From Paludibacter sp. (GTDB lineage Bacteria; Bacteroidota; Bacteroidia; Bacteroidales; Paludibacteraceae): a stretch of DNA of 42,873 nucleotides. Positions within the stretch are counted from its first letter, which is position 1; the number at the start of each line of letters is the position of its first letter. Positions 574 through 9,814 of the stretch are shown here, one piece after another. The translations under genes were made by a program, and so were the position numbers. Location of the stretch: assembly GCA_009781075.1 (NCBI GenBank), contig WQYU01000006.1, forward strand, positions 1 to 42,873. Direction: 5' to 3'. A model generated the notes under the pieces. The model worked only from the letters and a program-made list of their open reading frames with translations. It was not told the origin of the DNA and did not search any database.

Positions 574-1191
574 TTATCTTTGGAACATTGTACATTTAAA
601 ATCAAATTCGTTTACTGTATTATAACTAATCACATCAATAATAAATACTGATATTGGAAAATAATCCAATTTTGGAATATTTCCGTCTGACGGATTTGGA
701 GAATTATCGTCTAATTCCACGAACAGCAAACTGTCATCCTTCAAAAATATGGAACTTGTTGAATTTACAATAGATGCAGATTCAAACTCTTTATCAATAT
801 AGTTCAGCGATAAAACGTAATAACTCCAATACAAATAATTAGTCGCACCGATTGCTCTGCCAATTATCAGAATATAATTATCTGAATTTGTTTGAAAAAA
901 ATATATTGTATTATCATTTGAATACGATAATGCTTCTTGTATCTTTTTTTCGTATAATGGACGCTTTGTTATGTCTGTTATTTTTTTAACAGCAGATTTT
1001 TTATCTATTTGCTCAAAAACGATAGAATTGGTTTGAATTCCTAACGAATCAACTATATCTTTAAAACAAAATTGTAAAGAGTCAATGCCCTGTTCTGCTG
1101 CTTGCTTAGCGGTATCTTTTTTACCTATATTACACAGACAGGCAAAAAAACAAGAAAATACCATCACCACAACTATTTTGACATATACCAT
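574..1191 (-). CDS. Putative exported immunity protein of the Rhs toxin
   Basis: This 205-aa protein has no family I recognise. Its N-terminus is a hydrophobic export signal (residues about 1-20, VVVMVFSCFFACLC) with weak lipobox-like cysteines, so it is probably periplasmic or a lipoprotein. The remainder is acidic and alternates short hydrophobic stretches with Asn/Asp/Ser-rich loops. The gene starts 19 bp inside the 3' end of the Rhs toxin gene, which implies translational coupling, and it ends just before a terminator. A small unrelated gene directly after an Rhs toxin tip is the classic position of the cognate immunity gene. The toxin tip looks like a peptidoglycan hydrolase, so an exported inhibitor would sit in the right compartment. 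Immunity function is inferred from position only. Confidence 0.6.
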   Translation of the reverse strand: MVYVKIVVVMVFSCFFACLCNIGKKDTAKQAAEQGIDSLQFCFKDIVDSLGIQTNSIVFEQIDKKSAVKKITDITKRPLYEKKIQEALSYSNDNTIYFFQTNSDNYILIIGRAIGATNYLYWSYYVLSLNYIDKEFESASIVNSTSSIFLKDDSLLFVELDDNSPNPSDGNIPKLDYFPISVFIIDVISYNTVNEFDFKCTMFQR

Positions 1192-4100
1192 AATTTTCCT
1201 TGATTATAAAATTTGGAAAATGTAGTTTTCCCGATTGCATTAGTAGTTTGGAACATATATTTATCATTAACTTTATGACTTTCCAAGTTCCAAAGATTAT
1301 GAGAAGGGTCTGTAAATAATGTCCCTTGCGTATAGCGCGGAGTATTTTTATAATCTGTCCCATCCCAAAAATATGCACCATTAGTTACATCAATATCAGT
1401 AATTCTACCAACAGCTATTGCTCTATGAATATTCGCTCGTTTTGTATTGGCTGCATTTCCTGTTTCATTTTGATAGGAATATTTATATGTGCTATTTTTA
1501 CCTCCACTTGTTTTCCACACACCATAAACACCATACGGAGATTTTGCAGATAATTGGTCAAATATTGAATTTCCCTGATTGGCTGCTCGATTTTCCAAAA
1601 CATTAAATATTCCCAATGATTCTTCAAAACCTCCTGCACTTTCTGCATACATAGTTTCTGCCAAAAACATAAATTGAGATTGTGTCATATTCATATTTAA
1701 GGCTGAATTTTCAAGTACTCCCAATGCAAAATCATAAATGTCCCTATCTGTATCAAAATAATCTTGCATTGTATTTGTCAAATCAGAAGTACTTGCAATC
1801 ACTTGGTCTTTGCCATCCTCGATATGTGTGATTGCGCCGGTTTCAATATCTACATAATCGGTTAGCACCATCCCAGTCGGATCCACATATCGCAGCGGGT
1901 TTCCTCCAAATGCACAATACGGCGACATACGATAATACCTCTCCGCCATCGGGTCAGGTGTTGTAAATCTTCCCAAAACATCATCGTAATGCCTTGCCGA
2001 GAAGTCATACCAATTCAGTCCGCTCACCAAATCTAATTCTTTGCTCCCAAAAAGGTACGGCTGCTGTTCCTGCCCGAAACCCCTGTCTTGATATGGCATT
2101 CCGTAAAGATAAAATTGGGTGGATTGGATTGCAACGCCGCTTTGGTTCTGTACCACACGGTTGTTGCCCAAATGGTCCTTTACATAAAAATAATACTTCC
2201 CGTCATCTATTTTAATATAACCGTTATCTACAAGAATTTTGCTAAGTTTGCCGTTCTCGTATATCTTATTGCCAACATAATCGGTTGTACTTGTTTCACT
2301 TACACCGGTATTAGTTCCGGCCACAAATTCTTCCCACTGATGCGTAACGTGCAGTTTTGTGCCGGTAGAAGTGTAGAAATACTCATTTGTACCGGCAAGT
2401 TCAGGTGTGGATATCTGTACTTTTATCGGCAACGAAAGTGCATTATATTTCACATTATCAATACCTTTGTTCATATCTTTTGTCATTGCACCGTTGGCAT
2501 TGTAAAAATATTCGGTATCTTCATTTGCCAAATCCTTAAAATCGGCAAAGCCAATAGTCATATTATCGCTTGCATTCTCGGTAACTTTAAGTAGTTGATT
2601 GCCGTTATATGTTAATGTAAGGTCGTCAATCGGCTCAAAAATTTTATTGTTCATTACCCCCATACGCTTCAGTGAAGTAATATTGCCGTGTTTGTCGTAA
2701 GAATATGACGTACTGTAGTTTACACCAAAAACCTGCGAATTGTCCGTCGCTTTTGTCAGGCGCTCCAGCCCGTCGTAGGTAAAATTGTATTCCCTGCTTT
2801 TCAATGCGCCTTCGGCACTTTCGGGCTGCTGCCATTGCTGAGTACTTATATTGCCGCCAAAAGTATATGACAATGTTTCCGTAAATACAGGATTTGTAAT
2901 GCCCGTAACCCACGAACGAACATTGTAAGTGTAGTCGGTTTTACGCACTCCTCCTTTATTATTAAGGGTTTTGAGCCGCCCAAGGTCATCATACATATTA
3001 TCTGCAAGTATGGTCTGAGCTGTTGCGTTGTTAAGCTGGTGGTATGTTTTTAACAGACGCCCTGCGTGGTCGTAAGTGTAAGTATAAACCTCTGCTATCT
3101 CTGTGGGAGCATAAGTTTCCTGTGTGTGTGTAAGTTTGCGCTTGACGGGCTGTCCTGTAAAATTATATGATATATATTCCTTTTCCATTCCGCCGAGATG
3201 GTTATTGGATTTACTTTGCACGATCTGACCCCGCTGGTCGTAATACATTACCGTTGCAAGATAGCCGCAACCGCCCATACCTGTAACATCAGGATTTACA
3301 ACGGGCATTTTGTCAAGTAATTTATTGATGTCCTTATTAATAATAATATCATTATTGCCATTCTCATCTGAGGAGCTAAAATCAGGGGTAATTCCTGAAA
3401 GTTCAACCTCACGCTCAGCAGGGTCAATTTCCAATGACTGCGGGTCGCCAACATTAATAATATCTAAATTATCTTCTATTGTCTGTTCTATGAACGTCTT
3501 ATTATAAGCGGTAATGGTACCTGTCAGCAGCCCCTTATGACAATATGCCTCTTGACCTGCCGGTTCATACGCCGCTCCATAGTCTGTTCCTGCATCTTCG
3601 TAGCCATATTTAAGTACACTTATACCGTTTGTTCCCAAAAATGTATAATCATCATAATAATTTACCGTAAGTACTGCTAAATTTTGCATAACAATATTAT
3701 CACCGGCTTGCAAACCATCAATAACATATCCGAAAAGCAGATTATCGGCGTTTGTACGCCTTGCCGTGATAACACTTATGCTATAGGGATTCAATGTGTA
3801 GTCCAGCGCTTTGCTGATAAAAAACGAAAGGCAGTTGCGTCCAAGCTTATCGGGTATGGTCATCAGCCATTTATTCTGGCTTGTCGCACGCATTTCCCCG
3901 TCCTGTGTGAAAATCAGGCGGTCGGATTTATCATAAATATAATAAATCGGCTCGCAGCCCGGTATGCTCTTGTAAATACAACGGTTGCGATAGTCGTACT
4001 TATACATATAAGCATACTTTCTCAGTAAAGGATCCTTTGTTGTCTTTTTGCCGGAAGTAAAACCGTCGGCAGCCATTGGCGGCAACACAAAACGCAAATT

Positions 4101-4787
4101 ACCGAAATCATCATAAACGTAATATGTATTTATCTGTTCGCTGCCATCAATTTGACGGGTCAATATCACCCGCCCGAGTTTATCCTTAAACTCAAAAGCA
4201 ACATTGCCGTCTTCGTCTGTTACTTTGGTAACATAAAGTTGATTTGCCTGATAATTGCCGCTGCGTAAAATATCATTACCCAAAACGTAATAATATCCAC
4301 AATCGGAAGCAGAATTTGGCAGATACTCGGTTTTAACGGGCTTTCCGCCTGTTCCGTTAACGTTTGGATTCCATGCGAATCCTGCGCCATATTGGGCAAT
4401 AACTCTATTCAAAGGCGATGCCTCGTAAACTGTCTGTGCATAGGGCTTGGCGTCATCCTGATAAATCGTTTTGGACAATGTCGAAAAAGCGTTAAAATTT
4501 ACAAAATCGCCTGTATTAGAGTTGCCTTTCAGCGGCAAATATGCTTTCTCCTCCCGTCCCAAAGCATCGTAGGTCAGGTAATTTACAAGGTCTTTGTTAT
4601 CGGGCGTAATGCCGCGGGCAACGGTCTGAACCGGCCTGCCAAGCCCGTCAAAATACTGAATACTTACTATCGAATCCTCACCTGCAACACCTGTCATTGT
4701 GGTGGTCTTAATGTAATTCCTGTCGGGGGACTGAGCACGTAAACAAAGTACGCTAAAAAATGTTAATACTAAAATTATTTCTCTCAT
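1173..4787 (-). CDS. DUF6443/Rhs-core polymorphic toxin with SleB-like hydrolase tip
   Basis: This 1204-aa protein starts with a Sec signal peptide ending near residue 19 (LRAQ|SPDR). A DUF6443-type N-terminal domain follows at about 20-150 (YFDGLGRPVQTV, YDALGRE). Then come many YD/Rhs repeats (YDHAGRLLKTY, YDGLERLTKA) and the Rhs-associated core ending in RFTTPDPMAERYY and YVDPTGM at about residue 973. The last 231 residues form a separate tip. Its segment FLAETMYAESAGG...GIFNVLENRAAN resembles the SleB/CwlJ-type hydrolase_2 fold (IYGEARGE...AAVILNR), with E1049 as the likely catalytic acid, and a later YFWDG motif fits the same family. In known Rhs proteins the repeats form a cage around the toxin. 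The coding sequence for the tip looks more AT-rich than the shell, as expected for an exchanged cassette. Export may rely on the T9SS-tagged neighbour. Confidence 0.85.
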   Translation of the reverse strand: MREIILVLTFFSVLCLRAQSPDRNYIKTTTMTGVAGEDSIVSIQYFDGLGRPVQTVARGITPDNKDLVNYLTYDALGREEKAYLPLKGNSNTGDFVNFNAFSTLSKTIYQDDAKPYAQTVYEASPLNRVIAQYGAGFAWNPNVNGTGGKPVKTEYLPNSASDCGYYYVLGNDILRSGNYQANQLYVTKVTDEDGNVAFEFKDKLGRVILTRQIDGSEQINTYYVYDDFGNLRFVLPPMAADGFTSGKKTTKDPLLRKYAYMYKYDYRNRCIYKSIPGCEPIYYIYDKSDRLIFTQDGEMRATSQNKWLMTIPDKLGRNCLSFFISKALDYTLNPYSISVITARRTNADNLLFGYVIDGLQAGDNIVMQNLAVLTVNYYDDYTFLGTNGISVLKYGYEDAGTDYGAAYEPAGQEAYCHKGLLTGTITAYNKTFIEQTIEDNLDIINVGDPQSLEIDPAEREVELSGITPDFSSSDENGNNDIIINKDINKLLDKMPVVNPDVTGMGGCGYLATVMYYDQRGQIVQSKSNNHLGGMEKEYISYNFTGQPVKRKLTHTQETYAPTEIAEVYTYTYDHAGRLLKTYHQLNNATAQTILADNMYDDLGRLKTLNNKGGVRKTDYTYNVRSWVTGITNPVFTETLSYTFGGNISTQQWQQPESAEGALKSREYNFTYDGLERLTKATDNSQVFGVNYSTSYSYDKHGNITSLKRMGVMNNKIFEPIDDLTLTYNGNQLLKVTENASDNMTIGFADFKDLANEDTEYFYNANGAMTKDMNKGIDNVKYNALSLPIKVQISTPELAGTNEYFYTSTGTKLHVTHQWEEFVAGTNTGVSETSTTDYVGNKIYENGKLSKILVDNGYIKIDDGKYYFYVKDHLGNNRVVQNQSGVAIQSTQFYLYGMPYQDRGFGQEQQPYLFGSKELDLVSGLNWYDFSARHYDDVLGRFTTPDPMAERYYRMSPYCAFGGNPLRYVDPTGMVLTDYVDIETGAITHIEDGKDQVIASTSDLTNTMQDYFDTDRDIYDFALGVLENSALNMNMTQSQFMFLAETMYAESAGGFEESLGIFNVLENRAANQGNSIFDQLSAKSPYGVYGVWKTSGGKNSTYKYSYQNETGNAANTKRANIHRAIAVGRITDIDVTNGAYFWDGTDYKNTPRYTQGTLFTDPSHNLWNLESHKVNDKYMFQTTNAIGKTTFSKFYNQGKLWYMSK

Positions 4788-4857
4788 ATCTTTTCTACTA
4801 CTTAGGTTTATTATTATCTTGTTTATAAATTAGGTTAGAATCAGGTTCTTTTGTGTC

Positions 4858-6027
4858 TTATCGTTTCATAACTACACTGCCGTGAACCAAATATCCGTCC
4901 AACCAAAAGTCGAGTACATAATTATCGGGCATCAAGCCGCTCAAATTAAAAGTAAAACTGCTGATGCCTTCCGGGTACGCACCCATATTCCGGTCAATAA
5001 AGGTCAAGCCCATCTTATCGCGTATCTGCACGTGTACGTCATTGCAAAAGTGAGGCAAATAAAGTTCAAACTGCAAATTCGTAATAACAGGATTCGGGAA
5101 AATATTATAATACATCCCTGCCCAAATATCATCCTGATCCCCCCCTGAAGATTGAGAATGTTCATTTTCTTCTGCCAGCATCAGTGCAAGTTCGTTGGCA
5201 TTGGCAGTATCGGGGACTTGCGAATACTGCTGCGGAGGCGGGTACAAAAAAGCCGTCTCATAGCGGTTTGTCTCTGTTGTATCAATATAAATGACAGTAC
5301 GCAATGTCTCAAAAACAGGATAACGATAGCCGCGGGCATACCATTTATACCTTTCAAAATAAGTATTTACCGTTGCGCTGTCGCCCTCTGTTGTTAGCAG
5401 CGGCTCGGCTTTTTGCTGCACCGCTTTGGTACGCAAAACCTGACGCAGAGTATCGCCCGTGGGCAAAATAATCATTCCGTATGCATCGCCTGCAAGCGAC
5501 ACCGAGCCGCTCTCGGCAAAAGGAACGCTGCGGGTGTAAAAACCTTCTGTGATGTATTGATGGGACAGCGAATCGCTGAAAGTCATCGGCAGTTTGCCTG
5601 TCAGCAGCGGCTTGCGGTAATGCAAGTCTGTGGCGGCATTTTGATAGCCCAGTGTTACCAAAACGCTGTCGGTAAACACATAATAATACAGCGTACGGTG
5701 TTCCCTGCCGATAAATACTGCATCTGATGGCTGCAGCAGCGAGGCAAAAACAGTGTCTTTGCCCATCAGATAAAACCCGCCGGAAAGTGAATCTTCAACG
5801 TAAATCGGCTCTTCATATTCAAGCGTATATTCAGGATTTATCGGCTGCAACTGCCCAAAGTCCCAAACAACATCGGCGCCTGCCCTGCCAGGGTCTTTAT
5901 ATTCTACCTGCTGCTTTACAATAACATCGCCTGAGCGCGGCAGGTTAAGTTCGCGCGTTATATGCGGCGGAGCAGCAATTGCATTAACTGCGATAAATAA
6001 TGATAAGATTAATAGGTATGCTTTCAT
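4858..6027 (-). CDS. T9SS type A sorting-domain protein in Rhs cassette
   Basis: This 389-aa protein has a cleavable signal peptide (MKAYLLILSLFIAVNAIAA) and a beta-rich body without a recognised enzyme motif. Its C-terminal domain of about 80 residues begins with YYNIFPNPVITNLQFEL and ends with YVLDFWLDGYLVHGSVVMKR. The FPNP start, the beta pattern and the short basic terminus are the signature of a type IX secretion sorting domain, so the protein should cross the outer membrane and be anchored or released. It is the middle gene of the cassette, 20 bp after the large upstream gene and 70 bp before the Rhs toxin. Since the Rhs protein ends in a toxin rather than a sorting domain, this protein could be a carrier or surface anchor for it. 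That role is inferred. Confidence 0.75.
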   Translation of the reverse strand: MKAYLLILSLFIAVNAIAAPPHITRELNLPRSGDVIVKQQVEYKDPGRAGADVVWDFGQLQPINPEYTLEYEEPIYVEDSLSGGFYLMGKDTVFASLLQPSDAVFIGREHRTLYYYVFTDSVLVTLGYQNAATDLHYRKPLLTGKLPMTFSDSLSHQYITEGFYTRSVPFAESGSVSLAGDAYGMIILPTGDTLRQVLRTKAVQQKAEPLLTTEGDSATVNTYFERYKWYARGYRYPVFETLRTVIYIDTTETNRYETAFLYPPPQQYSQVPDTANANELALMLAEENEHSQSSGGDQDDIWAGMYYNIFPNPVITNLQFELYLPHFCNDVHVQIRDKMGLTFIDRNMGAYPEGISSFTFNLSGLMPDNYVLDFWLDGYLVHGSVVMKR

Positions 6028-6047
6028 AAAAAAATTATTGATTTTTA

Positions 6048-9000
6048 TTAATTACTAGTGTTTGAACAACTTATATTTATATCAAAATTTGCAAAAAAAC
6101 TAATGCCTCCACACTTGTTATTGCTTGAACTTTTTGCAGATATATTACCGGAAGTGTCAATTTTAAGGTACATAAGGACAGGACTTGTTGAACCTCCGTA
6201 AGGCACTTCGAGCAAGTCTGCCCAAGCAGTGGCCGTAACAACTTCTGCAGGCAGCCAATTACCATCCAGTACTCCAACTATTTTATCACCAGTCCACAAT
6301 TGACCGGAATCGAAATATAAACTCATATCTATCCTTATTACAGTTGGAGATGGTGCTGTATAATTGCCAATTGTGCTGCTATAATTATTCGGATCTCTTA
6401 TAATACCTGTAACATACTTGCATTCTCCATACTGCTCTGCAGCATTCTGTCCGTTGGCGTTAATATCATTTAGCGCTTGTGCATCAGCATCCGACTGGCT
6501 ATCAAATGAATAATACCTGTTAGCTGGTACGGTATAATAGTAAAGAGCATTAAGACACCCTTCGGGACAATTTGTTTTTACAAAACATTTACTTTGTTCT
6601 TTATTATAAAATTTACCATCACTATACTCAAATTCGGATACCTTTTGATGCTCGTTATCATAAATATATCGTAATCGTCCGAAGGCGTCGTAATCGTAAA
6701 ATGTTGTAATACCTTGCGGATTAATCATAGTTGCCATTCCTGCCAATGGTCTATATGTGTAAGTAGTAACGAGGGAATTTTGAAGATTTGTGCGTAATAA
6801 ATTTCCGATATTCTCAACATCAGGATTTGATTGTGCTGCCAAAGATTCCACTTGAGTATCTGTATAACCCAATGCCGTTTTAACCTGCTCATAAGTAGCA
6901 TTATTGATCTCAGCAATGGGGTATTGATTTTTGTAACCCCAAAGATAGGTGGTTATGTCTGTTTCGTTGTTACTGATGGTAACAGGATTAAGTTTAGAGT
7001 TGTCGTACTCAAAACTTCGAACTATCCATGGGTTGCTATTACCGGTTTGCAACCATTCCTTTTCTACAGCAAATTTATTGTCATATTGTTGATAATCATT
7101 TATTTGCTTTTGTACAAAGATTGGATCCGTATTCGGACTTGTTTTATATTGACTTATTTCTACCGGATAGTTTAGCATATTTTTTTCACTCATTTGCGAA
7201 TAAATTGAATTGGACGTCATATCGAAAGGATACAAATATTTCGTTTTTACCGTATCCGAACGACTATCAACCATATTCGATTCTTTTATCAAATCATAGT
7301 TATTATAACGGAAATCCGTTCTTTTGACAGTATCGTTATCTTCGTATTTCATTATTTCGATGCTATAGGTTGGAAGGCAGTTTTTTAAATATATTTTTTT
7401 GGTAGCTCCTCCTCCGATACACGACTGAAAAGATACAATACAATCATTGTCATCTTCCTGTATTGCATCATCATCGTCCTGTGGGGATGATAAAACAGGC
7501 ATTGTTCTAACATCTTTATAAGCAAACCGGTCTTCTTTTACTGCTATTCCGTCTTTGTCGTAAAAAATCCGATTTAGTAAATGCCCTCTTAAATAAGCAC
7601 GGCTCGTTACTGCGCTAATGTTTGCTACTATGATATCTTCTGGATTCAAAGAGTTGCTGTAATTTGGAACAGATTTAATTTTAATTTCTTTAGAGTCTTT
7701 ATTCCATTGGTAACTGGAAAATTTATGAATTATATACGAACCATCTGAATGTACTTCGGCAACCTCTTCATAACCTATATGCGGTTCCCCTATATTGTAA
7801 TTTTTTTGCCATACATTGTTGTCCCAATCATATGTATTGCCGTAAGCATTACAAGAGTAAAACGGATAGTGTAATAAAGTTCCACTGCTTTTTGCTGTAT
7901 TCAAATTTATGTTTTTGTCGTAATTCATTACATATTTATATTGAATGTCCGATAATGGATTATTCGTATTCTCATTTTCAAAATTGCTTATTCTACTAAT
8001 GCGGCACCCTACTGTTTTTTCATCATTTCCTAAAGTTACCATGTTTGTTTCGGGCATTATATGGCTTGATGGGAAAACCTGAGTTTCCACACGTTTTCTG
8101 TATTCATTATATTCGTATTCGAATGTAGTACATCCGCCTGTAGGATATGTTATTTTCAATAACTGCCCTGCATATACATTCACTGTGTAGGCATAATCGT
8201 CCTTGTTCCAATATTCATAAAAGGGTATACTACCATTTTTCGTTTCAGGTGGAACATCTTGTACCGGATTATAATCAAATATATATGGTTGTAACCCTTG
8301 TTGTTGAAAAGTTTTTAAAAATCTCCTTCTGCCCTTATTGCCCATATTGTCCATATTTGTGTAACTCAATTCAAATTTTTTTGTCTCACCAAGTTGGTTA
8401 ATGATTATTGTGTCCAATTGAAACGTGTTTCCATTAAATCTGTAATTAGTGTTTTGAGTCAAGAAACTTTTGAGCGTATTTTCTATTGATTTTTTGAATA
8501 AAATTGTTAGTCCTGTATCGTCAATAGTTATTGATTTGGGGATTACCATTTTATTAACTATTGCCATTTCATCATGGAGATAATTCTTCCATGCTAAAAA
8601 AGTTGATTGATAATAAGGATAAGTACTGCGTAAAGATAATAAAGCATTATCTGAAGTTATAGAATCTGGATCATTAGGTTCATTATTTTCATAATTAATG
8701 TTCATTATCCGTCCGTTTGGCGCTGTAACTTTACTCAGGTACCAGGCCATAACAGTTTGATTAGTACCTTCCTGCAGAGTGCCATAATATAAATCAATTG
8801 GAAAAGAAATTTCCATATTGGAAAGCTTTCCGCCAAATTCCCATATATATCCATCTGGCGAGGTAATAATTATTTTAGATGAAACAGGATCCTGCGCTCC
8901 AGTTCTTTGAGCCAATAAACTATCCAAATTTACTTTATATCCTGCTTGATTTGTTTTAATACTCCCATCATTGGCAATCATAAAAGTACCCTGATGTGAA

Positions 9001-9536
9001 CCGAATTTGAATTCAAATAAATCAGGTTCATAATCGTGCAATTTACCATTATCAATTAAAGGTAATTGAAAACTGGGTATTGAAGCGTTTGACTCAATAG
9101 GAGGGTATTCCATATTGTATACTGCATCTTTATCATAAATTATATGAGGAGGGTCTTTTATTGCTCTCCAAAAACCTTTTGCAATAATATTTTGATCATT
9201 TTGATTACCTCTGTTATCATCCGGCGCTCCATAAACTTCGCGTGTAATTACACCTCCATATTCCAAACGCCAATCTAAGCCCACTAAACCTGCCCGCACA
9301 TTCGGTCTGAATCCTCCTGATGTATAAGCAAGGGAGATAGAAAAAGGAAAATCTTTATCAGGAATTTCGAAAATCGGTATGGATATATTAATTTTCCCTT
9401 CGTACAAGTTCACCGGAATATCACCATACCGAATAAAATCTGTTACTTGCGGCGTTGCTCTTCCAAACTGCTCTTGCCCAAAAGTCGCCGCGCTGCAAAG
9501 AAATAATGCTAATATTAATACACATTGTTTTCTCAT
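6048..9536 (-). CDS. Exported Rhs/Tc-B-like protein with DUF5977 segment
   Basis: This 1162-aa protein is first in the cassette. It has a signal peptide (cleavage near ATFG|QEQ). The N-terminal part (IPVNLYEGKINISIPI, FSISLAYTSGGFRP, VGLDWRLEYGGVITREV) matches the start of SpvB/TcB-like and Rhs shell proteins. The middle contains degenerate YD-type repeats (SFEYDNSKLNPV, YDYDAFGRLRYIYD). At about 970-1040 lies a DUF5977-like stretch (YTVPANRYYSFDSQSDADAQALNDINANGQ). The last 120 residues are a beta-rich domain I cannot place. It lacks the Rhs-associated core and any toxin tip. It could be a companion shell, an adhesin or a receptor-binding component. A good promoter lies directly upstream, so it leads the operon. 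Confidence 0.75.
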   Translation of the reverse strand: MRKQCVLILALFLCSAATFGQEQFGRATPQVTDFIRYGDIPVNLYEGKINISIPIFEIPDKDFPFSISLAYTSGGFRPNVRAGLVGLDWRLEYGGVITREVYGAPDDNRGNQNDQNIIAKGFWRAIKDPPHIIYDKDAVYNMEYPPIESNASIPSFQLPLIDNGKLHDYEPDLFEFKFGSHQGTFMIANDGSIKTNQAGYKVNLDSLLAQRTGAQDPVSSKIIITSPDGYIWEFGGKLSNMEISFPIDLYYGTLQEGTNQTVMAWYLSKVTAPNGRIMNINYENNEPNDPDSITSDNALLSLRSTYPYYQSTFLAWKNYLHDEMAIVNKMVIPKSITIDDTGLTILFKKSIENTLKSFLTQNTNYRFNGNTFQLDTIIINQLGETKKFELSYTNMDNMGNKGRRRFLKTFQQQGLQPYIFDYNPVQDVPPETKNGSIPFYEYWNKDDYAYTVNVYAGQLLKITYPTGGCTTFEYEYNEYRKRVETQVFPSSHIMPETNMVTLGNDEKTVGCRISRISNFENENTNNPLSDIQYKYVMNYDKNINLNTAKSSGTLLHYPFYSCNAYGNTYDWDNNVWQKNYNIGEPHIGYEEVAEVHSDGSYIIHKFSSYQWNKDSKEIKIKSVPNYSNSLNPEDIIVANISAVTSRAYLRGHLLNRIFYDKDGIAVKEDRFAYKDVRTMPVLSSPQDDDDAIQEDDNDCIVSFQSCIGGGATKKIYLKNCLPTYSIEIMKYEDNDTVKRTDFRYNNYDLIKESNMVDSRSDTVKTKYLYPFDMTSNSIYSQMSEKNMLNYPVEISQYKTSPNTDPIFVQKQINDYQQYDNKFAVEKEWLQTGNSNPWIVRSFEYDNSKLNPVTISNNETDITTYLWGYKNQYPIAEINNATYEQVKTALGYTDTQVESLAAQSNPDVENIGNLLRTNLQNSLVTTYTYRPLAGMATMINPQGITTFYDYDAFGRLRYIYDNEHQKVSEFEYSDGKFYNKEQSKCFVKTNCPEGCLNALYYYTVPANRYYSFDSQSDADAQALNDINANGQNAAEQYGECKYVTGIIRDPNNYSSTIGNYTAPSPTVIRIDMSLYFDSGQLWTGDKIVGVLDGNWLPAEVVTATAWADLLEVPYGGSTSPVLMYLKIDTSGNISAKSSSNNKCGGISFFANFDINISCSNTSN

Positions 9537-9586: not shown

Positions 9587-9616
9587 CAAAATTACAATGT
9601 TTTTATAATTTTGCAA
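9587..9616 (-). promoter_or_regulatory. Promoter of the Rhs cassette
   Basis: On the minus strand a TTG (plus 9614-9616) is followed after 19 bp by TAATTTTG (plus 9587-9594). This matches the Bacteroidota -33/-7 consensus with ideal spacing, about 50 bp before the first cassette gene. No comparable element is seen between the downstream genes, which supports one four-gene transcript. Confidence 0.65.
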
Positions 9617-9814
9617 ATATTTATAAAATTTTTTATAAAAAAATAGAAAAGAATAGTTGGTTTATAATTACAGGGTAAAATGAGCAAATGATGTACAATA
9701 CTCAAAAACGTCATTTTTCTATATTATATAAAATCTGTAATATCAATAAAATAAATGTTAGGTAACCTGAATTTTGGCTGTTTTGCCATTTCGATAGAAA
9801 AATTTTTGCAGAAG

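What the first reader, a model, noticed from the sequence alone, without database searches (positions are those of the whole stretch)
574..9536. Candidate four-gene T9SS-linked Rhs toxin cassette
Four minus-strand genes share one promoter and one terminator: a large exported Rhs/Tc-B-like protein without a toxin (6048-9536), a protein with a T9SS sorting domain (4858-6027), a DUF6443/Rhs protein with a toxin tip (1173-4787), and a small exported protein overlapping its 3' end (574-1191). The toxin itself has a Sec signal but no T9SS tag, while its neighbour has the tag. This suggests an export arrangement in which the sorting-domain protein carries or anchors the Rhs cage. Rhs toxins and T9SS cargo are each established; the joint system is my inference, and I do not know whether it has been characterised.
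Basis: partly seen in the sequence, partly recalled or inferred. Interest (0 to 1): 0.78.

Follow-up and report, generated by a model that had tools for sequence, protein, structure and literature searches.

The report
Split Rhs toxin with T9SS-tagged partner
[quoted passage not shown] the set recurs across many relatives, which makes it a testable case of a tagged partner helping untagged toxin proteins out of the cell.

Summary
Four minus-strand genes (A 6048-9536, B 4858-6027, C 1173-4787, D 574-1191) lie between one Bacteroidota-type promoter match and one hairpin terminator. B has the type IX secretion (T9SS) sorting domain; A and C do not. Among relatives, 50 of 53 B proteins match that domain; 0 of 42 A and 0 of 33 C proteins do. 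A, B and C recur together in 48 complete and 15 truncated loci of Bacteroidales, in several orders. New here: A and C are two halves of one Rhs protein. Natural A-C fusions exist (L200, L195, L199), and A's model resembles TcB with an SpvB-like N-terminal domain. C ends in an exchangeable toxin tip whose family also sits beside T6SS genes and is probably SleB-like (cell-wall lytic). D is its likely immunity protein: the pair recurs in L141. B is not universal: A-C pairs occur without it, including in a family without SprA, while elsewhere unrelated sorting-domain proteins sit in the same place. B's physical role (carrier or anchor) is unproven. Rhs genes beside T9SS sorting-domain genes were noted before in Apibacter, so this is a new variant of a known kind.

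The parts
9587..9617 (-). Bacteroidota-type promoter match TTTG-N19-TAATTTTG, about 50 nt before gene A
   Evidence: pattern match only
6048..9536 (-). Gene A, 1162 aa, Sec signal: N-terminal half of a split Rhs shell (TcB-like), no sorting domain, no toxin
   Evidence: model ma00e106b40a5 matches TcB chains and SpvB N-domain; A-C fusions in L200, L195, L199
8289..9410 (-). A residues 43-416: SpvB-like N-terminal domain
   Evidence: VIA Z 12.8 to 6p0x SpvB N-terminal domain, 237 residues, rmsd 4.8
6417..6611 (-). A residues 976-1040: DUF5977, appended after the conserved end of A; accessory, matched in 2 of 42 A proteins (the window's included)
   Evidence: PF19404 3e-19
4858..6027 (-). Gene B, 389 aa, Sec signal: dedicated T9SS cargo protein
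4861..5136 (-). B residues 298-389: type A T9SS C-terminal sorting domain
   Evidence: PF18962 in 50 of 53 members, TIGR04183 in 44 of 53; fold match to PorU, mirolase and NucA sorting domains
1173..4787 (-). Gene C, 1204 aa, Sec signal: C-terminal half of the Rhs shell plus toxin tip
4350..4706 (-). DUF6443 domain of C
   Evidence: PF20041 4.5e-38 to 5e-40
1869..2108 (-). Rhs-associated core of C
   Evidence: TIGR03696 1.1e-11
1176..1868 (-). Polymorphic toxin tip of C (residues 974-1204), probably SleB-like lytic transglycosylase; conserved Y-A-E at Glu1049
   Evidence: conservation break; homologues in L141, L142, L143, L184-L188, several beside VgrG/PAAR-like genes; weak SleB match
574..1191 (-). 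Gene D, 205 aa, exported, probably lipoprotein: immunity to the tip
   Evidence: overlaps the 3' end of C; homologous tip-partner pair in L141
476..501 (-). Hairpin terminator after D
   Evidence: pattern match only

Best explanation
The four genes encode one antibacterial polymorphic toxin. A and C are exported by Sec and together form one Rhs cocoon, split between two proteins near the place where TcB and TcC are split; C's last ~230 residues are the exchangeable toxin, most likely a SleB-like enzyme that cuts peptidoglycan in a neighbour's periplasm; D, an exported protein, neutralises it in the producer. [quoted passage not shown] Shown by sequence or structure comparison: the gene set, the sorting-domain pattern, A-C as halves of one protein, the polymorphic tip and its co-inherited partner. 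Inferred: cocoon assembly, tip chemistry, and B's physical contact with the cocoon.
For: Triad in 48 complete and 15 truncated loci; cassette-type B proteins fall in one group split 100/100 from stand-alone relatives. Sorting domain: B 50/53, A 0/42, C 0/33. Fusions: L200 has a B homologue, 9 nt, then one 2116-aa chain with the A profile at 7-987 and the C profile at 1028-1890; L195 and L199 also have fusions. A's model aligns over residues 31-976 to TcB chains, 560-620 residues, Z 11-13.7, and to the SpvB N-domain. Other Bacteroidales have unrelated sorting-domain proteins of 500-740 aa beside or between A and C (L146, L150, L167, L170, L172, L173), and probable ones beside ~3000-aa single-chain Rhs genes (L189, L190, L193). 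Tips vary (M91, M23, Ntox10), and orphan C fragments lie downstream. Tip homologues follow VgrG or PAAR-like genes and the partner genes read are exported. A SleB-like T6SS effector with periplasmic immunity is published (PMC11148199).
Against: No interaction data. About 19 of ~33 A-C loci in the order-wide sample have no recognised sorting-domain gene beside them, and a family without a SprA hit keeps A-C, so A-C can exist without B. A folded Rhs cocoon may be too large for the T9SS pore. SprA is near-universal in this order (233 of 247), so co-occurrence is weak evidence. A's model is moderate (pLDDT 71), C was not folded, and the SleB match is below significance (E 0.12).
Confidence: 0.5

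Rival explanations
1. B is only a surface anchor or receptor. A and C leave the cell by another route (lysis, vesicles, unknown exporter) and B, already on the surface, binds the finished cocoon.
For: A-C exists without B and in a family without a SprA hit, so another exit must exist there; many T9SS cargoes end up attached to the surface (established knowledge).
Against: None that is decisive: tight retention of B with A-C in one clade and unrelated sorting-domain proteins in the same place elsewhere fit an anchor as well as a carrier.
Confidence: 0.2
2. B is an independent T9SS-secreted protein (for example an adhesin for the target) that is co-expressed with the toxin but never touches it.
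For: The N-terminal two thirds of B got no clear fold match; gene neighbourhood alone does not show contact.
Against: Strong retention over distant families, also next to A-C fusions (L200, L195).
Confidence: 0.2
3. A and C are two separate Rhs shells, not two halves of one.
For: Each is about as long as many single Rhs cores, and each has its own signal peptide.
Against: Natural A-C fusions with the junction at the end of A and the start of DUF6443; A stops after the first YD repeats and has no Rhs core; in RhsA 7q97, A's end maps to 730-774 and C's to 1175-1369.
Confidence: 0.1
4. The toxin stays in the periplasm and is freed only by cell lysis; the T9SS link is incidental.
For: Y. entomophaga Tc toxin is released by lysis of specialised cells (PMC10847048, abstract).
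Against: Does not explain the repeated sorting-domain neighbour.
Confidence: 0.1

Closest known systems
Apibacter Rhs proteins beside T9SS type A sorting-domain genes (PMC8125069, 2021)
   Same: Rhs toxins with SpvB/TcdB-type N-termini, no PAAR, encoded next to T9SS sorting-domain genes; T9SS role proposed, untested.
   Different: Described there without the two-gene split and without the dedicated B family, and in Apibacter, not in Bacteroidales.
TANFOR polymorphic toxins (Jana et al. 2020, PMC7073777)
   Same: Bacteroidetes polymorphic toxins with Sec signals and immunity genes, whose neighbourhoods are enriched in T9SS sorting-domain proteins; proposed T9SS substrates.
   Different: TANFOR N-terminal domain instead of Rhs halves; the enriched neighbours carry SprB repeats and a sorting domain.
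TcB-TcC cocoon of Tc toxins
   Same: Two-protein Rhs shell: SpvB-like N-domain on the first, Rhs core and variable toxin on the second.
   Different: No TcA beside it; A has little room for the TcB propeller (from lengths); Sec signals on both halves; an immunity gene; a T9SS-tagged partner.
T6SS Rhs effectors (RhsA, Tse5)
   Same: Rhs shell, exchangeable tip, immunity gene, orphan tips.
   Different: Single chain, loaded from the cytoplasm by T6SS; no PAAR or VgrG in this locus; no VipB hit in this genome.
T6EC3, SleB-like T6SS effector (PMC11148199)
   Same: This tip's family also lies beside VgrG/PAAR-like genes with exported partners and keeps a conserved Glu.
   Different: Here it is the tip of an Rhs protein; direct homology to T6EC3 not tested.

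Membership tests
Rhs polymorphic toxin | RHS/YD repeats and Rhs-associated core | tested here: met
   PF05593 and TIGR03696 in C
Rhs polymorphic toxin | Variable C-terminal tip after a conserved core | tested here: met
   tips M91, M23, Ntox10
Rhs polymorphic toxin | Downstream immunity gene that travels with the tip | tested here: met
   tip and D homologues adjacent in L141; one such case
Rhs polymorphic toxin | Toxicity and neutralisation | not testable with these tools
   needs an expression assay
T9SS cargo (gene B) | Sec signal plus C-terminal sorting domain | tested here: met
   the window's own copy is below the profile cut-off
T9SS cargo (gene B) | T9SS machinery in the genome | tested here: met
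   own genome: SprA 2617 bits, GldM 370 bits, 42 sorting-domain matches
T9SS cargo (genes A and C) | C-terminal sorting domain | tested here: not met
   0 of 42 A, 0 of 33 C
Tc toxin (TcA/TcB/TcC) | TcB-like and TcC-like halves | tested here: met
   fold of A, YenC2 matches of C, A-C fusions
Tc toxin (TcA/TcB/TcC) | TcA translocator | tested here: inconclusive
   no hit in own genome, but controls were silent too
T6SS Rhs effector | PAAR/VgrG linkage and T6SS | tested here: not met
   no PAAR or VgrG domain in A-D; no VipB hit in own genome while the control rang
TANFOR toxin | TANFOR N-terminal domain | tested here: inconclusive
   no TANFOR hit in A or C in Pfam/NCBIfam; presence of a TANFOR model in these libraries not checked
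SleB-like hydrolase (tip) | SleB fold and catalytic Glu | tested here: inconclusive
   profile match E 0.12 to 4f55 in the right region; Glu in Y-[AG]-E kept in all 8 aligned members that cover it; no Pfam hit

The most novel reading that the evidence does not exclude
A T9SS-tagged protein carries untagged toxin proteins across the outer membrane in trans. The shell is split in two so that each half can pass the pore and the cocoon closes outside, and different families of sorting-domain proteins have taken up this carrier role repeatedly.
Probability: 0.25. Interest if true: 0.85.

Novelty: new variant of a known kind. Interest (0 to 1): 0.6.

Why it matters
How large Rhs toxins without T6SS links leave Bacteroidota cells is open, and in the papers read here a role of T9SS in bacterial competition is proposed but untested. 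This set gives a compact, conserved test: a defined tagged partner, an untagged toxin in two halves, and an immunity gene, also found in cultured Dysgonomonas. The fused and split forms in one genome also offer natural variants for studying how two-part Rhs/Tc cocoons arise.

Tried and rejected
Co-occurrence with T9SS inside the family or order was meant as a test but says little: SprA is in 144 of 150 and 233 of 247 genomes. The sigma-70 scan was uninformative. The first B alignment was too diverse for the genome scan; a smaller one worked. Stand-alone B relatives in the family search were separated from cassette B by a tree. Structure searches with B told only about its sorting domain. The tip alone had no Pfam or PDB hit, a 4-sequence profile gave only chance matches, and 9 sequences gave SleB at E 0.12, beside unrelated matches of the same strength. 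No SleB-family gene was found in 41 relatives, so no profile-profile comparison was made. An alignment of C with tip homologues misplaced them, so A was folded instead of C. No TcA hit, but uninformative. Searches for DUF6443, and for type A sorting domain with Rhs, found no paper.

Full report
What is there. One Bacteroidota-type promoter match lies before A and one hairpin terminator after D, with short gaps or overlaps between genes, so one transcript is likely but not shown.

A conserved set. A search with B in 150 family genomes gave 50 with hits; the flanks split these into B beside A and C, and B alone. A scan of genome contigs with a B alignment gave 68 loci, and profiles for A, B and C show the three together almost everywhere the contig is long enough. 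Duplicates removed, there are 48 complete triads (36 B-A-C, 8 A-B-C, 3 B-C-A, 1 A-C-B) and 15 truncated ones. A tree separates 57 cassette-type B proteins (55 seen beside A or C) from 23 stand-alone ones at 100/100 support. Of the two exceptions one lies at a contig end and the other is a second copy in its genome.

Where the export tag is. 50 of 53 cassette B proteins match Por_Secre_tail and 44 match TIGR04183. None of 42 A or 33 C does. The window's B is too diverged for the profile, but its model (pLDDT 93) ends in a sandwich that best matches the sorting domains of PorU, mirolase and NucA; several other Ig-like domains score nearly as high, so the family evidence carries the claim. The rest of B got no clear match and was barely tested by that search.

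A and C are halves of one protein. A ends just after the first YD repeats in most relatives. Its model (pLDDT 71, residues 650-970 mostly above 90) matches TcB chains over residues 31-976 and the SpvB N-domain at 43-416. Sequence profiles place A's end in the middle, and C's end at the end, of RhsA 7q97 and teneurin-like chains; C also hits YenC2. Decisively, L200 encodes a B homologue followed after 9 nt by a 2116-aa chain with A at 7-987 and C at 1028-1890; L195 has a B-like gene and a 2025-aa fusion; L199 has a 2358-aa fusion. The genome of L200 also holds a split B-A-C set (L168).

The tip and D. C loses conservation sharply at residue ~973, other tips include Peptidase_M91, Peptidase_M23 and Ntox10, and orphan C fragments lie downstream in many loci. 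In L141, a tip homologue (46% identical over 102 residues) overlaps a lipoprotein-like gene related to D (25%, E 2e-12). Tip homologues sit after VgrG genes in Pseudomonas and Treponema, after a gene that reads like a PAAR protein in Paraburkholderia, and on Legionella plasmids; the partner genes read all begin with an export signal. The family keeps a Y-[AG]-E motif and an NGAYFWDG-like motif. A profile gives SleB at E 0.12-0.2, not significant alone, but a SleB-like T6SS effector with periplasmic immunity and an essential Glu has been published (PMC11148199). Across the sets, 23 of 38 genes directly after C start with a hydrophobic export-like stretch by a crude rule, so some other tips may act in the cytoplasm.

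T9SS link tested more widely. All 20 genomes tested from the B-locus scan have SprA, and 8 of 8 have GldM and sorting-domain proteins, including Bacteroides nordii and B. salyersiae. Inside the order, SprA is in 233 of 247 genomes and DUF6443 in 51. Three DUF6443 genomes lack a SprA hit: G274, G281, G380. In the loci read from them A-C is present and no sorting-domain neighbour was seen. Among about 33 A-C loci of the order-wide sample, roughly 14 have a sorting-domain gene in the run: B or a B-like gene in seven, unrelated proteins, mostly 500-740 aa, in the rest (L146, L150, L151, L167, L170, L172, L173). Single-chain Rhs genes of ~3000 aa are also directly preceded by weakly matching sorting-domain genes (L189, L190, L193). 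So the Rhs part is broader than B, and a tagged neighbour has probably been acquired more than once. This count was made by hand and is not corrected for shared ancestry.

Mechanism. Best reading: Sec exports A, B, C and D; A and C build the cocoon around the tip; B takes the cocoon to, or keeps it on, the surface through T9SS; the tip cuts peptidoglycan of a neighbour; D protects the producer. The B-cocoon contact is the main untested step, and pore size is the main objection.

Known work. TANFOR toxins beside T9SS cargo genes (PMC7073777) and Apibacter Rhs genes beside T9SS type A sorting-domain genes (PMC8125069) are the closest precedents; both propose a T9SS role, untested. What is added here is the two-gene split, the fusions that support it, the dedicated B family, its spread, and the tip-immunity pair. 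The paper library holds only open-licence papers and no preprints, so work outside it could have described more.

Noticed in passing
window 1173-1868; L143, L184, L185, L186, L187, L188: The toxin tip belongs to an unannotated effector family on plasmids of Legionella, Paraburkholderia, Pseudomonas, Eleftheria and Treponema, several directly after VgrG or PAAR-like genes, with exported partners.
   Followed up: partly
window 1173-4787 (profile A4): The best solved-structure hit of C's profile is mosquito salivary gland surface protein 1 (8fjp, E 6e-28), better than TcC or T6SS Rhs proteins.
   Followed up: no
L149, L150, L170, L176, L182, L183: Genes with a repeated C-terminal motif (LPDVPS..E...NG..VGEM.A.LLQKVEELTLYIIEQ) recur near or directly upstream of A in other Bacteroidales, a possible further component.
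   Followed up: no
L152 2003-3031, L176 4406-5170, L145 5412-7792: Lipoprotein-like genes take the place between or just upstream of A and C in some families.
   Followed up: no
L142 1042-2310 and 2985-3611: A tip homologue is fused to a different N-terminal region starting MDYY.P, and a second gene beside it shares that start; possibly another delivery class.
   Followed up: no
window 6417-6611: DUF5977 is appended after the conserved end of A in the window and in only one more of 42 A proteins.
   Followed up: partly
L122: A record named Burkholderiales MAG carries the A-B-C set; likely a binning error.
   Followed up: no
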